64,000 bases of DNA from a virus, in the IMG/VR virus record IMGVR_UViG_3300027911_000012, positions 1 to 64,000 of that record, one strand, 5' to 3'. Position 1 is the stretch's first letter. Each line of letters begins with the position of its first letter. The notes under the pieces are model-generated. The model was not told the DNA's origin, searched no databases, and saw only the letters and a program-made list of their open reading frames with translations. The position numbers and the translations under genes are program-made. Positions 860-45,770 of the stretch are shown one piece after another.

Positions 860-2203
860 TCAAAGTGTAACGTACTCGCGGGGATACGGCACGTTCGGTA
901 CTATTTTGCCGAGAAACCCACACAACGCAGGCCAGCCATCTCCGAAACGACCCATATCCATGCACAGCAGGTCGCCGGGTCTGCCGAGGAAGTAATCGTA
1001 TACGTCTTCATTGTGTTTCCGGTATCGTTCCAGAAACACTTTCTCGTCGAACGATTTCCGTCCATACACTTCGGTATGGATACGGTTCGTGAAACAGTCC
1101 GTGTCCCACGACGCCCGCCATGGATTGTGAGCGGTGTCCCAATGACTCCGGACACTGTTCAACCACTCTTGCTCGGGCCGTACCGTGAGCACGAATTTCG
1201 ATCCCGGATACGCGGCGTCCAGTTCTCTGTACAGTATCGACACCGGCAAATCGCTCGTGGCGTAATGGCGCTCGATCGTCAGCGACCGGCCCGCGTCCTT
1301 CATCTCGAACCAGATGTTGCGGGCCTTGCGCGGCGACTCCCAATGACTGGCGTCAAATCCCAAAATCCTTAGCGCCGACGTGAGCGAGTTCGTTGCCGTC
1401 TTGTGCAACCCGATACCGAATATCCGCGTCGGTATCCGGCCAAGTGTTATTGGTTTGTCTGAAAAATTCCTGTACACCGTCCCGCACCCGACGTTGCCAA
1501 AATTGACAATCGTGGCATCGGGGCCGTCAGCTAACTGCTTCTCGTAATCGTCCACGAGTTCTCTGACGTGTGGGTACTCCCGGAACCGCACGGCGTCATT
1601 GTGTGGCACGCACCGGAAATATCGCGGGTCGATTTCGACCGCCGCGTACCCGAGCCGTTGCAACCTTCGGTTAAAGTCCTTGTCGTCGGGCGCGTATGTT
1701 GTGTACCGCTCGTCGTAACCGCCAGCGTTCAGGAATTGCGCGGACGTGACACAGATACGGCCAGAACAGCCGCGGAATTGCCTGCCTTGGCCGGGTATGA
1801 CTTTAGCGGCCAGGAATGTGTCGCGGTTCTTGAGATCGCTGAAGTGATTCGATACCGATTCCGCAAATCCCTGAAACGTGAAGTTGTCGGCGTCTAGGTT
1901 AACGAGCACGTCGGCGCCTTCGCGCAGCCCGCAGCGGTGAACGATGTTCTTGGCCTTGGCCATTTCAAACGGCCCGTCGCACGGGTAGCTGTAAAACACC
2001 AGCCGGCCGGACTCGATGTCGGGCATGTGATGGGCGCGGATGTAATCGATCAGACCGTCGCTGTCGCAATTCGGGCCGGTGTTCGCGTACCCGAGTACGA
2101 TGAATTTGCAATCCGGGTATGTGGCGTTGTCGGCCAGATTGCGGGCCAGAGTTTGCGTGATGTGCCCGGTTCGCCCCTTTGCCGTTGTGCAGAACGCTAT
2201 CAT
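860..2203 (-). CDS. Glycosyltransferase-sulfotransferase fusion protein
   Basis: 447 residues with two enzyme domains. Residues 1 to about 250 look like a GT-A glycosyltransferase: a NLDADN stretch supplies the DxD metal/nucleotide-sugar motif (D104, D106), and GGYDERY (161-167) with PDDKDF (172-177) matches the galactosyltransferase-type C-terminal region. Residues about 260-447 match the PAPS-dependent sulfotransferase family: a 5'-phosphosulfate loop GIGLHKTATNSL (263-274), a 3'-phosphate region FVLTVRPEQEWLNSV (about 337-351), and a typical C-terminal GDGWPALCGFLG block. The inferred role is to add a sugar and then sulfate it on a glycan, lipid or virion/host surface. The preceding gene encodes a SAM methyltransferase, 15 nt away. 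Acceptor and cellular location are unknown. Confidence 0.85.
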   Translation of the reverse strand: MIAFCTTAKGRTGHITQTLARNLADNATYPDCKFIVLGYANTGPNCDSDGLIDYIRAHHMPDIESGRLVFYSYPCDGPFEMAKAKNIVHRCGLREGADVLVNLDADNFTFQGFAESVSNHFSDLKNRDTFLAAKVIPGQGRQFRGCSGRICVTSAQFLNAGGYDERYTTYAPDDKDFNRRLQRLGYAAVEIDPRYFRCVPHNDAVRFREYPHVRELVDDYEKQLADGPDATIVNFGNVGCGTVYRNFSDKPITLGRIPTRIFGIGLHKTATNSLTSALRILGFDASHWESPRKARNIWFEMKDAGRSLTIERHYATSDLPVSILYRELDAAYPGSKFVLTVRPEQEWLNSVRSHWDTAHNPWRASWDTDCFTNRIHTEVYGRKSFDEKVFLERYRKHNEDVYDYFLGRPGDLLCMDMGRFGDGWPALCGFLGKIVPNVPYPREYVTL

Positions 2204-2217
2204 GACCGTGCCAGCCT

Positions 2218-2823
2218 TTATGGAGTCTTTAGTCTACAGATGCAGCATTGTGTGCACTGATCGAGGTTTGAGTGAAAATGCCGAACCACGTCGAAATGGA
2301 TATCCATGAACTGACGAAACTCTCCGAACGACCACTCACGGACGTGGCACTGGTTCCCCGGCGGCCCCATGCGGTTCGTCCACTTTGGGTGTCTCGCCAT
2401 CAACTCCCGGTCGGGTGTGCTAATGACTAGCCACCGAGGCCCGATATACTTGAACAAGGAACACAGTTGACCGGGATCGTTCACGTGCTCGATTACGTCG
2501 GAACAGATTAGTAGACCTGGTGGCAGGCAGTTCAGGTTTTCAGCCGTACTCCACCAGCCGTTCGGGTAAAGGCGTTTCAGTATCTCGACAGCAGGAGCCA
2601 GATCCACCCCAATCGTAGTGTACTTCGGGTTTATCCCAAAATACTTCATCAGCTTGAATCCGGAGCCGCAGCCAAAGTCGAGCACGGTCGTCAGGTCGAG
2701 GGCTTCGGATAATTTCAACGCCGTCTCGTACACTTCCCGCTGCCAGGTGTCGTCGCCGCCGATGTCGTAGGTCTGGGGAGCGTCGAGTCGCTCTACATAT
2801 CCGTCGGGGAGAAAGTAAGCCAT
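2218..2823 (-). CDS. Class I SAM-dependent methyltransferase
   Basis: 201 residues. Motif I is TVLDFGCGSGFKL (about residues 46-58), followed by an acidic motif II (IGVDLAP) and a motif IV-like LLICSDVIEHV. This is the arrangement of small Methyltransf_11/23-type enzymes. The acceptor cannot be read from the sequence; lying just before the glycosyltransferase-sulfotransferase gene in the same direction suggests glycan or small-molecule modification rather than DNA methylation (no DPPY or PCQ motif). The start is ATG 2823. A TATACA sequence ends 7 nt upstream, so this gene may head its own short transcript. Confidence 0.8.
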   Translation of the reverse strand: MAYFLPDGYVERLDAPQTYDIGGDDTWQREVYETALKLSEALDLTTVLDFGCGSGFKLMKYFGINPKYTTIGVDLAPAVEILKRLYPNGWWSTAENLNCLPPGLLICSDVIEHVNDPGQLCSLFKYIGPRWLVISTPDRELMARHPKWTNRMGPPGNQCHVREWSFGEFRQFMDIHFDVVRHFHSNLDQCTQCCICRLKTP

Positions 2824-2886: not shown

Positions 2887-4605
2887 TTACAAAAATAACG
2901 TTTCCCGATTGGCGGACGCCTGCCCGCGTTCTGTGGTAATCAATCGCGCCGTCCGCAAATCGCTAAGGTAAGTCGTGAACGTCCCAGATTTTGCTAGGTT
3001 CGCCTTTGCCGTCAAGTCTTCCATGGATACGGGGTCGCCACCGGCATCGACGAGGACACGCAGGATACGGCGTGCGCCGTCCCGGAGCTTCGGCTCCCAT
3101 ATGGACAACACTTCTTCGGTCGTGGTCGGCGCGGATGGTACGTTGCCACCGAAATACTTTAGTCCTTCCTCGGTCGCGTATACCTTGCCGTCGCGCTCGT
3201 CGATGTAAACGCCTTTGCGTAAATCCGACATGTATGTCGTGAACGTGCCGGACTTCTTCATCCCGGCGTGAGACCGCATTTGACCGATAGCCATCCCTTC
3301 CGGCGACCACTGTACGAGAGCCGATAACATGCGCTCGGCACCGGCACGGAGTTTTCCCGCTCCATCACAATTCGGTGCGATATGCTTCATGACCGATGGG
3401 GGGTAGATGGATCGAGTAACGTGGCTGACGGTAATCGGCGTGCTGGCACGATGCTCCGCAGCGGTGTCCGGTAACCGCCCCATAGCTTGTGTCAACAACT
3501 CGACGTGCCCCTGCACCAGCCGCAATTTCTCCTGCAACCGGTCGAATTCTTTCTTGACTTCTTTGGGCACGACTTCGATCCGGCGCTCGACAATCTTGAT
3601 TTTCTCTTCGACGCGCGGCTTGCCGAAACCCGCTGACAGTTCGCGTTTGAGACGTGCGATCTCGGCGCGCAGTTCTCGCGGGTCGTCGGCCTTGGCTTTC
3701 TCGATCGTAGCCGCCATTTTGGTTTTCAGCGCATCCAGATCGACGGGAGCGAGCTGGATGTTCTTGTACGACTTGCCAAACTCCGGGGTCGCGCTGGAGT
3801 CAAACGTTTCCCTCTTCCGTACATTTACCTTCTGGCAAATATCCAACCATCCCGGACTCCAGAACCACGCCGTGCCTTTCGGTAACGACGGCAGGGAATC
3901 AAGCACCGTATTCGCTTCGGACTTGTCGGCGTGAATGTCGATCCACTCTTCGATGGCCTTTCGGTCTTGCGGGCTGATTGTACGTAACGGCACCAGCACT
4001 TCCGCCTGTGTCAACACGTCCTTGTTCAACACTGCCGACCGCTGAGTAATCATGGTGATACCCACACCGCGGGCTCGGCCACGTCGTACGAGGTCTTGCA
4101 TGGCACCGAGTAACCGGGCTTGGTCGGGTTGTGGCTTTTGCGGAGCGAAGGCGTCGGCCTCGTCCAGAAACATGTGAAGTGGTGACCGCTTCGCCTCGGG
4201 GGCTTTTGCGTGGTAAAGCTTCTCGGCGAAGTCCGTCATGAACCGGATCATGGCACCCTTGCGGAGTAATCCAAGATCCAGCACTACCGACGATCCGGTG
4301 TCCACGATAAATTCGGCCACGATTGCCCCTGTGGTCTCGTCCAAAGGGATGTCACCGTGTTCGCCGCCCATGACAATGATCGGCAGTCCGGGGGACTTGC
4401 CGTCGGAACCTGAACGCAGACCCCACCAGACACCGACAGGATCGCAGACGACAATCTGGGCTCCTACCTTGAGCATCTCCTCGGCCATCACAGCGGCAGT
4501 ATAGGTCTTGCCCATGCCACGTTTGGCTAACACCGCGAAGGTCTCGGTGACGGCGGACAGCGGCAACGACAATCCAGGTGCAATATGGAGTTTGCGCTCA
4601 CTCAT
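2887..4605 (-). CDS. HerA/FtsK-like ATPase with C-terminal winged-helix repeats
   Basis: 572 residues. The Walker A is AKRGMGKTY (27-35) and the Walker B is LHMFLDEADAF (about 143-153), followed by an RGRARGVGITMITQR stretch typical of the HerA/VirB4 clade of hexameric DNA motor ATPases. Residues about 315-385 are charged and helical, probably coiled coil. Two similar C-terminal modules, each containing KSGTFTTY(M/L)SDLR, look like tandem winged-helix DNA-binding domains. A role as a DNA translocase or end-processing motor is inferred. The 5' end overlaps the upstream gene by 4 nt (ATGA). No HerA-partner NurA nuclease is seen next to it. Confidence 0.85.
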   Translation of the reverse strand: MSERKLHIAPGLSLPLSAVTETFAVLAKRGMGKTYTAAVMAEEMLKVGAQIVVCDPVGVWWGLRSGSDGKSPGLPIIVMGGEHGDIPLDETTGAIVAEFIVDTGSSVVLDLGLLRKGAMIRFMTDFAEKLYHAKAPEAKRSPLHMFLDEADAFAPQKPQPDQARLLGAMQDLVRRGRARGVGITMITQRSAVLNKDVLTQAEVLVPLRTISPQDRKAIEEWIDIHADKSEANTVLDSLPSLPKGTAWFWSPGWLDICQKVNVRKRETFDSSATPEFGKSYKNIQLAPVDLDALKTKMAATIEKAKADDPRELRAEIARLKRELSAGFGKPRVEEKIKIVERRIEVVPKEVKKEFDRLQEKLRLVQGHVELLTQAMGRLPDTAAEHRASTPITVSHVTRSIYPPSVMKHIAPNCDGAGKLRAGAERMLSALVQWSPEGMAIGQMRSHAGMKKSGTFTTYMSDLRKGVYIDERDGKVYATEEGLKYFGGNVPSAPTTTEEVLSIWEPKLRDGARRILRVLVDAGGDPVSMEDLTAKANLAKSGTFTTYLSDLRTARLITTERGQASANRETLFL

Positions 4606-23197: not shown

Positions 23198-24043
23198 ATG
23201 CTGACATCCACTCTCCACACCAGCTTGTCCACGTTGTCTGCCGCCGACATCGTCAACCGCATCCGTCTCGGCAAAGGCCCGCATATCCCTGATCACCGTC
23301 GATTCGCGCTGGCCGATTTCATCCCCTTGGGTACGCCACCGCCAAGCGCCAACTTCTACCAAGGCCAGACGCAGTTCGGGATGATGTTGAACGACGTGCT
23401 TGGTGACTGCACATGCGCGGCTGTCGGTCACGCGGAACAAGTAGCGTCATTGAACGACGCGCCACCGCCCGAGATCGGTACCGAGATCACTGTCACCGAC
23501 GACGTGATCGAGAACATGTACGAGAAGTCCTGCGGCTACGTCCCCGGTAATCCGTTCACCGACAATGGTGGCATCATCACCAATGTTCTGGACTGGGCGC
23601 GTCAGCACGGTATCGGCCACCCTGGCCCGACACATCATCACCGTCACCGTCTCGTTGCATACGCCGATCCCAATCCCGCCAACGTCACACACATCAAGCA
23701 GGCGATTGCGGAATTCATGATCGTCGATATCGGATTGCAGTTACCGGTGACGGCACAGGCGCAGATCGGCGGCGTGTGGGACGTGGTGGGGAATCCGAGG
23801 ACAGATCCGGACTCGGTACCGGGGTCGTGGGGCGGTCACAGCGTCGTGGTTGCCGAGTACGACGTGAATGGACTGACGTGCATCACGTGGGGCGCGCTAC
23901 AGGCCATGACTTGGAGATTCTGGAACACTTACTGTGACGAGGCCCATGTGTTGTTTATGGCTGCGCTGCTGGATCGATACAAAATGCTGACGGCGGCACA
24001 GTTGGCGATACTGAACGCTCAGTTGCAGGCGTTGAACAATTAG
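23198..24043 (+). CDS. Papain-like cysteine protease homologue
   Basis: 281 residues. The predicted catalytic Cys is in LNDVLGDCTCAAVGHAE (about 65-81) and the His in SWGGHSVVVAEYD (about 210-222), followed by an ITWG/mTW motif and DEAH (a chance string, not a helicase box). This C1-type family occurs in actinobacterial and phage genomes without known substrate. No signal peptide, so cytoplasmic or released at lysis. GAAAGG precedes ATG 23198. Confidence 0.7.
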   Translation: MLTSTLHTSLSTLSAADIVNRIRLGKGPHIPDHRRFALADFIPLGTPPPSANFYQGQTQFGMMLNDVLGDCTCAAVGHAEQVASLNDAPPPEIGTEITVTDDVIENMYEKSCGYVPGNPFTDNGGIITNVLDWARQHGIGHPGPTHHHRHRLVAYADPNPANVTHIKQAIAEFMIVDIGLQLPVTAQAQIGGVWDVVGNPRTDPDSVPGSWGGHSVVVAEYDVNGLTCITWGALQAMTWRFWNTYCDEAHVLFMAALLDRYKMLTAAQLAILNAQLQALNN

Positions 24044-45023: not shown

Positions 45024-45770
45024 ATGGCAAACGACGCAATCGGCGAAAGAATGAAATCTCAATACGAGGACAGGACACGTATCTTCCTGCCCCGACGAAC
45101 GTATACAATTTTACGCGTAGACGGCAAGGCGTTTCACTCCTACTGTCGCGGCATGGCACGCCCGTACGACAAAGGTTTCATGCAGGCAATGGACAACACC
45201 GCTATGTCGATGCTCAAAGAGCTGATGGGGGCCGAGATCGCTTATGTACAATCCGACGAAATCAGCTTCCTGTTGACCGACTTCGCCAAACCTAATACAG
45301 AAGCGTGGTTTGACGGCAACATCCAGAAGATGTCGAGCGTGGCAGCGGCAATGGCGACGGCGTATTTCACGGTGTCGATGGGCGGTGAGCGTGGATTAGC
45401 GATGTTCGACGCCAGAGTGTTCACGATACCGGATCATGTCGAAGTCGAGAACTACTTCATCTGGCGACAACAGGACGCCACGAGAAATTCGATTCTGATG
45501 TTAGCGCAGCACTACTATTCGCCGAAGCAGATGCACGGGAAGAACTGTTCCGAACTTCAGGACATGATCCACGACAAGGGCGATAACTGGAACGATCATC
45601 CGGCAAGATTCAAGCGCGGCGGATTCGCGTACTATGACAAGTCGGCGCAGCCTTACCCTGCTTGGCGGATGGCCGATGAGTGCCCTGTGTTTACAGGGGA
45701 CGAGGGTAGGCCGTTTCTGAAATCCCTGATTCCGGTGCACTGGCAAGAGGATTTGGCGGTGGTTAAATGA
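45024..45770 (+). CDS. Thg1-like 3'-5' nucleotidyltransferase (tRNA repair)
   Basis: 248 residues. The polymerase-fold metal motifs are ILRVDGKAFHSY (Asp33) and YVQSDEISFLL (Asp78, Glu79), the two signatures of tRNA-His guanylyltransferase and Thg1-like proteins. Length matches the family (about 240-260). Bacterial and phage members mainly repair 5'-truncated tRNAs by adding nucleotides in the reverse direction. It is a single rightward gene inside the leftward virion block, with its own leaderless-type promoter, and converges with a KTSC gene (8-nt overlap). Confidence 0.85.
   Translation: MANDAIGERMKSQYEDRTRIFLPRRTYTILRVDGKAFHSYCRGMARPYDKGFMQAMDNTAMSMLKELMGAEIAYVQSDEISFLLTDFAKPNTEAWFDGNIQKMSSVAAAMATAYFTVSMGGERGLAMFDARVFTIPDHVEVENYFIWRQQDATRNSILMLAQHYYSPKQMHGKNCSELQDMIHDKGDNWNDHPARFKRGGFAYYDKSAQPYPAWRMADECPVFTGDEGRPFLKSLIPVHWQEDLAVVK

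What the first reader, a model, noticed from the sequence alone, without database searches (positions are those of the whole stretch)
860..2203. Single-chain glycosyltransferase-sulfotransferase
A GT-A type glycosyltransferase (DxD and GGYDER motifs) is fused to a PAPS-dependent sulfotransferase (intact 5'-PSB and 3'-PB loops). A phage protein that both adds and sulfates a sugar is unusual. The neighbouring methyltransferase could extend the modification. Targets could be host surface glycans (superinfection exclusion) or virion proteins.
Basis: partly seen in the sequence, partly recalled or inferred. Interest (0 to 1): 0.75.

Follow-up and report, generated by a model that had tools for sequence, protein, structure and literature searches.

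The report
Phage sugar-adding and sulfating fusion enzyme
This phage gene makes one protein that joins an enzyme predicted to attach a sugar to an enzyme predicted to put sulfate on it; the same pairing is kept in over 70 different phage sequences, some of which also carry the gene that makes the sulfate donor, so sulfated sugars look like a real but undescribed phage trait.

Summary
Confirmed and extended. The ORF at 860-2203(-) is one 447-aa chain: an N-terminal GT-A glycosyltransferase (aa 1-~250, DAD 104-106, GGYDER 161-166, catalytic D174) and a C-terminal PAPS sulfotransferase (Pfam Sulfotransfer_4, aa 260-443, E 2e-32). AlphaFold gives pLDDT 91 and pTM 0.91; the halves match PAPS sulfotransferases and chondroitin synthase/beta-1,4-galactosyltransferase.

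It is no assembly accident. A dedicated scan found both halves in one ORF in 77 of 80 viral loci (71 distinct sequences). DxD is invariant; the 5'-PSB and 3'-PB residues are 95-100% conserved; both halves are under purifying selection.

New evidence: 7 of 49 fusion-bearing contigs carry an APS kinase gene (it makes PAPS) just downstream on the same strand, overlapping or abutting in four. None of 39 contigs with only the GT relative does. A papain-like protease gene is a second recurrent neighbour. The fusion lies in diverse phages, often just upstream of terminase.

Best reading: a bifunctional enzyme that adds and sulfates a glycan, with PAPS from the host or the phage's own kinase. The acceptor (virion protein or host envelope glycan) is not shown. 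DNA modification is disfavoured. The methyltransferase link is not conserved. New variant of a known kind.

The parts
860..2203 (-). GT-sulfotransferase fusion gene, 447 aa
   Evidence: Open frame ATG to stop; both halves in one ORF in 77 of 80 viral loci of a dedicated scan; AF2 pLDDT 91.3, pTM 0.91
1454..2203 (-). GT-A glycosyltransferase half, about aa 1-250: DAD aa 104-106, GGYDER aa 161-166, catalytic-base candidate D174
   Evidence: Pfam matches in relatives; Foldseek to K4CP chondroitin polymerase, CHSY3 and B4GalT1; profile alignment of the WG-x-[DE]-D motif to 2z86/2z87 and B4GalT1; D104, D106, D174 in all 55 sequences
863..1429 (-). PAPS sulfotransferase half, aa 259-447: 5'-PSB K268/T269/T271, 3'-PB R342/S350, invariant D318
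   Evidence: PF17784 E 2.4e-32; profile to SmSULT-type and Cpz8 sulfotransferases E 1e-18; Foldseek to SgdX2 (TM 0.76 by target) and Cpz8-PAP
2218..2823 (-). Upstream class I SAM methyltransferase gene (201 aa), 14 bases before the fusion, probably same transcript
   Evidence: Methyltransf_23 E 1.5e-10; no homologue in the flanks of 54 relatives, so link to the fusion is not supported beyond position
2887..4605 (-). HerA/FtsK-type ATPase gene (572 aa) upstream in the same block
   Evidence: DUF87 3.5e-8 and HerA_C 5e-7; phrog_2666 1.8e-17; same order HerA then fusion in L014, L021, L136
481..843 (-). Small acidic protein gene directly downstream; in relatives L010 and L021 it also follows the fusion and leads to the terminase genes
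23198..24043 (+). Papain-like cysteine protease gene (phrog_19005); next to the fusion in 17 relatives, far from it here
   Evidence: phrog_19005 1.7e-35; profile to xylellain 3ois E 3e-8; AF2 pLDDT 85 and Foldseek 3ois E 7e-10; neighbourhood

Best explanation
The gene encodes a bifunctional, soluble enzyme. The N-terminal GT-A domain transfers a sugar from a nucleotide sugar to an acceptor, and the C-terminal domain uses PAPS to put sulfate on a hydroxyl, most likely on the sugar just added or its immediate acceptor, so that the phage makes a small negatively charged sulfated glycan. PAPS comes from the host's sulfate assimilation; some related phages bring their own APS kinase to raise the supply. 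The gene is cargo carried by diverse phages and read with the late packaging/head block. My preferred target is a newly made virion protein (about 45%), next a host envelope glycan or its lipid-linked precursor (about 35%). Shown by sequence and model: architecture, conservation of catalytic and cofactor residues in both halves, selection, linkage to APS kinase, position near terminase. Inferred: that both halves are active, that they act in sequence on one substrate, and the target.
For: Single ORF; PF17784 E 2.4e-32. AF2 pLDDT 91.3, pTM 0.91; Foldseek hits SgdX2, Cpz8 with PAP and schistosome sulfotransferases for the C-half and chondroitin polymerase, CHSY3 and B4GalT1 for the N-half. Fusion in one ORF in 77 of 80 viral loci, 71 distinct sequences. 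D104, D106, D174, T271, W347 invariant; K268, T269, R342 98%; S350 95% of 55 sequences. Halves co-inherited: identity matrices correlate r 0.57, 0 of 2000 permutations as high; dN/dS 0.04-0.24 in both halves where dS is measurable. APS kinase in 7 of 49 fusion contigs, all just downstream on the same strand, 4 overlapping or abutting the fusion's stop, against 0 of 39 GT-only contigs and 3 of 8 ST-only contigs over the cut-off; Fisher one-sided p 0.014 for fusion against GT-only. Late position: TerL, head or portal genes on the same strand within 6 kb in 11 relatives; in G007 the order is HerA-fusion-protease-TerL-downstream block. Phage virion glycosylation by phage GTs has precedent (Freeman et al. 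2023 as cited in PMC11256854 and PMC12619734).
Against: No biochemistry. No phage isolate carries it, so host and expression are unknown. The window's own record has no APS kinase and no ATP sulfurylase was found in the fusion contigs. The GT half of the window protein is below the Pfam cut-off. The solved ST relatives include phenol or drug sulfotransferases, so the acceptor need not be a sugar. Four of 55 members have membrane-like C-terminal tails, which fits a membrane target better than a virion one. Viral contigs are fragments, so absence counts are soft.
Confidence: 0.68

Rival explanations
1. The enzyme decorates the host envelope (capsule, O-antigen or lipid-linked precursor) with a sulfated sugar, so that superinfecting phages no longer bind, as serotype-converting phage glycosyltransferases do.
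For: Nearest free-standing ST relatives sit in bacterial polysaccharide loci next to glycosyltransferases (Roseobacter plasmid L004, Jannaschia L005). GT half resembles a capsule polymerase, K4 chondroitin polymerase. A transmembrane tail in L042 and amphipathic or Trp-rich tails in L037, L038 and L063.
Against: 51 of 55 members, the window's included, have no such tail; no gtrA/gtrB-like partner seen near it; the gene sits in the late block rather than with lysogeny genes in the relatives read here.
Confidence: 0.35
2. The fusion modifies phage DNA: the GT adds a sugar to a hydroxymethylated base and the ST sulfates it, against restriction. Phage systems with glycosyl- and sulfotransferases for bases have been proposed (Iyer et al. 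2013, as cited in PMC10829341).
For: PMC10829341 reports co-occurrence of viral sulfotransferases and glycosyltransferases and suggests nucleotide or protein modification.
Against: No Tet/JBP dioxygenase in 41 fusion contigs (but no control rang) and a thymidylate-synthase-type base-modifying enzyme over the cut-off in only 2 of 41, the window not among them. GT fold is nearest protein/polysaccharide GT-A enzymes. Membrane tails in some members.
Confidence: 0.08
3. The two halves are independent enzymes tethered only for co-expression; the ST sulfates a small molecule or lipid unrelated to the sugar.
For: ST relatives with solved structure include drug and antibiotic-pathway sulfotransferases. 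Free-standing ST genes occur in other phages, some with APS kinase. Bacteria fuse this ST domain to several other domains, e.g. an inositol-monophosphatase-like one.
Against: The pairing is kept in 71 distinct sequences without a split form among close relatives; the model has one confident domain arrangement, pTM 0.91.
Confidence: 0.15
4. One half is a dead remnant, e.g. the ST serves only as a binding domain.
For: The 5'-PSB loop has Ala for the common Gly (KTAT for KTGT) in many members; one member has Lys for R342 and three depart at S350.
Against: Cofactor residues 95-100% conserved, dN/dS well below 1 in both halves, APS kinase linkage.
Confidence: 0.05

Closest known systems
Sulfotransfer_4 (PF17784) PAPS sulfotransferases: SgdX2, Cpz8, schistosome SULT (5tiv, 4mua)
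   Same: Fold, 5'-PSB and 3'-PB loops, conserved Asp in the [ST]-D-[LNW]-P motif (D318 here)
   Different: Those are free-standing and act on drugs or antibiotic intermediates; here the domain is fused behind a glycosyltransferase in a phage
GT-A enzymes with the WGxEDxD-type motif: K4 chondroitin polymerase (K4CP), CHSY3, beta-1,4-galactosyltransferase 1
   Same: Fold, DxD, WG-x-[DE]-D motif
   Different: Sequence identity about 14%; single small domain; donor and acceptor unknown
Phage virion glycosylation (mycobacteriophage capsid and tail GTs, Freeman et al. 2023 cited in PMC11256854)
   Same: Phage-coded GT, possible structural-protein target
   Different: No sulfation known there; not tested here
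Two-domain glycan enzymes such as heparan sulfate N-deacetylase-N-sulfotransferase (PMC10864358, title only)
   Same: Works like it: two successive glycan reactions, the second a PAPS sulfotransfer, in one chain
   Different: First reaction there is deacetylation, not glycosyl transfer; eukaryotic; no membership claimed
Bacterial GT2/Sulfotransfer_4 fusions (L191, and L143 in reverse order)
   Same: GT and ST in one chain
   Different: Different GT2-type GT (GT half not matched by the phage GT profile), chromosomal MAG contigs, order reversed in L143: independent fusions

Membership tests
PAPS sulfotransferase (Sulfotransfer_4) | Whole-domain profile match | tested here: met
   PF17784 113 bits against cut-off 22.8; 48 of 48 relatives
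PAPS sulfotransferase (Sulfotransfer_4) | 5'-PSB and 3'-PB loops intact | tested here: met
   K268 98%, T269 98%, T271 100%, R342 98%, S350 95% of 55
PAPS sulfotransferase (Sulfotransfer_4) | Fold | tested here: met
   SgdX2 TM 0.76, Cpz8 0.69-0.71 by target length
PAPS sulfotransferase (Sulfotransfer_4) | Sulfate transfer from PAPS | not testable with these tools
   Needs an assay; APS kinase linkage in 7 phages is indirect support
GT-A glycosyltransferase (GT2/GT7-like) | Profile match over the curated cut-off in the window protein | tested here: not met
   Glyco_transf_7C 17.4 bits against 23; relatives reach E 3.6e-10
GT-A glycosyltransferase (GT2/GT7-like) | DxD and catalytic Asp/Glu in the WGxDD motif | tested here: met
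   D104, D106, D174 in 55 of 55; motif aligned to K4CP and B4GalT1
GT-A glycosyltransferase (GT2/GT7-like) | Fold | tested here: met
   K4CP 7e-8, B4GalT1 1e-6, 6p61 TM 0.67 by target
Phage DNA hypermodification system | Base hydroxylase or hydroxymethylase in the genome | tested here: inconclusive
   No Tet/JBP in 41 contigs (control silent); thymidylate-synthase family over cut-off in 2 of 41; contigs may be incomplete
Serotype-converting gtr system | gtrA flippase and gtrB partner next to the GT | not tested
   Flanking genes of the window were scanned and show none, but no dedicated search was made
Virion glycosylation system | Glycan on purified virion proteins | not testable with these tools
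   No isolate

The most novel reading that the evidence does not exclude
A mobile phage cassette for making sulfated glycans: GT-ST fusion, its own APS kinase for PAPS, and a papain-like protease, read together with packaging genes, so that virions (or the infected cell's surface) carry a sulfated glycoprotein. This would be a phage-coded sulfation pathway of a kind not yet described.
Probability: 0.35. Interest if true: 0.82.

Novelty: new variant of a known kind. Interest (0 to 1): 0.62.

Why it matters
Sulfation of glycans is well known in animals and in some bacterial polysaccharides, and APS kinase genes in viral contigs are usually read as auxiliary genes for sulfur assimilation (e.g. 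cysC in PMC9789665). The linkage found here gives a different reading of at least some of them: they supply PAPS to a sulfotransferase encoded next door. If true, diverse phages make sulfated sugars on virions or host surfaces, which bears on adsorption, superinfection exclusion and on how viral sulfur genes are annotated. The fusion also makes the coupling of sugar transfer and sulfation testable with one recombinant protein.

Tried and rejected
Single-sequence scans of viral and genome contigs found no relatives; alignment-based scans did. GenBank phages: only a GT-half match, in a short contig with bacterial-type genes; ST half none. Considered that the ORF might be a chimera or an assembly join: rejected by 71 distinct in-frame relatives. 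Considered that the two halves might be shuffled among phages: identity matrices of the halves correlate. Considered that the window phage makes its own PAPS: no APS kinase or ATP sulfurylase in the record. Considered DNA modification: markers mostly absent. Considered a conserved partnership with the methyltransferase: not found in relatives. Considered the HerA-type ATPase as a conserved partner: present in only 6 of 40 contigs, so the fusion is cargo of diverse phages. Three MAG contigs with the fusion (L136 in a methanogen MAG, L137 in a deltaproteobacterial MAG, L138 in an alphaproteobacterial MAG): L136 and L137 look like phage contigs, so they do not fix the host. Two searches failed on a handle limit, one paper look-up on a term rule and one because the paper is not held.

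Full report
OBSERVATION. The ORF at 860-2203 on the minus strand is real and continuous, 447 aa from ATG to stop. The C-terminal half matches Pfam Sulfotransfer_4 (aa 260-443, E 2.4e-32) and, by sequence, solved PAPS sulfotransferases. The N-terminal half has DAD (104-106), GGYDER (161-166) and a WGxDD-type motif (D174); in the window protein itself it stays below the Pfam cut-off (Glyco_transf_7C 17.4 bits against 23), but most relatives match glycosyltransferase models at E <= 0.01, down to 5e-11. The window is part of a 66,316-base virus record with phage genes (helicase, DNA polymerase I, HNH endonucleases, virion-protein families).

STRUCTURE. With an alignment of 48 relatives AlphaFold2 gives mean pLDDT 91.3 and pTM 0.91 for the whole chain. 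Foldseek against the PDB finds PAPS sulfotransferases for the C-half (schistosome enzymes E 7e-12; SgdX2 TM 0.76 and Cpz8 with PAP 0.69 by target length) and GT-A enzymes for the N-half (K4 chondroitin polymerase E 7e-8, CHSY3, B4GalT1). A profile of the GT halves aligns the phage motif twgpDDkDfnaRL with thWGGEDnEFgyRL of K4CP and with the WGGEDDDiyNRL motif of B4GalT1; by established knowledge of B4GalT1 this places D174 at the catalytic base (inference).

THE FUSION IS AN OLD, STABLE FAMILY. Alignment-based scans of IMG/VR with either half alone return the same thing: the close relatives of either half, down to about 49% identity for the ST and 36% for the GT, have both halves in one ORF, apart from copies cut off or shortened (L089, L092 and L130 run off the contig; L095 is a short GT-only ORF); more distant relatives are GT-only or ST-only genes. 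A scan with the whole fusion gives 77 of 80 loci with both halves in one ORF, 71 distinct sequences; of the other three, two are cut by the contig end and one is a distant ST. In 55 distinct sequences D104, D106, D174 and T271 are invariant, K268, T269 and R342 98%, S350 95%. The halves are co-inherited (r 0.57 between identity matrices, 0 of 2000 permutations) and both are under purifying selection in the close pairs where dS could be measured (dN/dS 0.04-0.24; dS is saturated in most other pairs). The ST half is the more conserved in 84% of pairs.

WHERE IT SITS. The host phages are diverse: the window's HerA-type ATPase occurs in only 6 of 40 fusion-bearing contigs, and contigs range from about 4 to 265 kb. 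In 11 relatives terminase, portal or major head protein genes lie within 6 kb on the same strand. In G007 (locus L021/L230) the order is HerA, fusion, papain-like protease, small proteins, TerL, further genes of the same block. The window shares HerA, the fusion and the next two genes with that order, so its terminase genes probably lie beyond the left end of the record; this is inference from synteny, and no TerL relative of those clusters was found in the record.

THE SULFATE DONOR. The strongest new evidence is an APS kinase gene in 7 of 49 fusion-bearing contigs (Pfam cut-off passed in all). In every case it is the next or next-but-one gene downstream on the same strand. Its start overlaps or abuts the end of the fusion in L037, L038, L020 and L043, as in translationally coupled genes; L070 and L022 have it a few hundred bases on, and L042 about 1 kb on with the protease between. 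The L020 kinase is a weaker match, part of a kinase-nucleotidyltransferase protein, and could have another substrate. In the control set, 0 of 39 contigs with GT-only relatives and 3 of 8 with ST-only relatives carry an APS kinase over the cut-off; Fisher one-sided p is 0.014 for fusion against GT-only and 0.004 for any ST against GT-only. Related contigs (L037/L038) are not independent, so these p-values are optimistic. The window record itself has none, and ATP sulfurylase (PF01747) is absent from all 50 contigs searched, so APS must come from the host.

A SECOND NEIGHBOUR. A 260-290 aa protein of phrog_19005 is found near the fusion in 17 of 58 loci, on the same strand in 16. Profile search and AlphaFold/Foldseek identify it as a papain-like cysteine protease (xylellain 3ois, E 3e-8 and 7e-10). 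In L038, L043 and L070 fusion, APS kinase and protease genes follow one another with overlapping ends between kinase and protease. The window has the same protease gene far away at 23198-24043. Its role is unknown; release or processing of a modified protein is a guess.

MECHANISM. The best-supported reading is a soluble bifunctional enzyme that adds a sugar and sulfates it, using host or phage-boosted PAPS. That both halves act is inferred from conservation; that they act in sequence on one product is inferred from the strict fusion. Target: position in the late block and lack of a membrane anchor in 51 of 55 members favour virion proteins; polysaccharide-locus relatives, K4CP likeness and membrane-like tails in four members favour the envelope. 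Base modification is disfavoured, with the caveat that the Tet/JBP control did not ring and contigs may be incomplete.

NOVELTY. Both domains are known; GT2-type/ST fusions of other make-up exist in bacteria (L191, L143), and viral sulfotransferases and cysC have been listed separately as auxiliary genes (PMC10829341, PMC9789665). No paper in the held library describes a phage GT-sulfotransferase fusion or its pairing with APS kinase; the library lacks most subscription journals. I rate it a new variant of a known kind.

Noticed in passing
window 23198-24043 and L014, L021, L038, L042, L043, L070, L136, L137: Papain-like cysteine protease family (phrog_19005, so far of unknown function) that recurs next to the fusion; catalytic N65-C71-H214 pattern with papain spacing.
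   Followed up: yes
L191:1233-2837, L143:5213-7621: Independent GT2/Sulfotransfer_4 fusions on bacterial MAG contigs, in opposite domain orders.
   Followed up: partly
L037, L038, L042, L063 C-termini: C-terminal tails that look membrane-binding (one transmembrane helix, two amphipathic Arg/Trp tails with His runs, one Trp-rich) after the ST domain.
   Followed up: partly
L044, L049 (IMG/VR contig of 527 kb) and L223: A 527-kb viral contig with two free-standing Sulfotransfer_4 genes, a GT relative and an APS kinase within about 20 kb: a second, unfused version of the same gene set.
   Followed up: no
L020:6585-7364: APS-kinase-like P-loop domain fused to a cytidylyltransferase-like HxGH domain directly behind the fusion; substrate unclear.
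   Followed up: no
L136 (JACTVF010000135.1): A 7-kb contig binned in a Methanoregulaceae MAG whose HerA, fusion and protease genes match viral contig L014; probably a misbinned phage contig.
   Followed up: partly
L138 (JAGWIK010000012.1): The fusion on an alphaproteobacterial MAG contig among chromosomal-type genes, with a gene of unknown family overlapping its start; possible prophage or domesticated copy.
   Followed up: partly
window 45024-45770: tRNA-His guanylyltransferase (Thg1-type) gene, phrog_4717 E 5e-78, in a phage genome without tRNA genes (ARAGORN found none).
   Followed up: no
BFVD A0A6J5QD79 (uncultured Caudovirales) and A0A3G4ZUI3 (Edafosvirus): Foldseek matches that run over more than 450 columns of the fusion model with poor superposition; may be further GT-ST or GT-x proteins in other viruses.
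   Followed up: no
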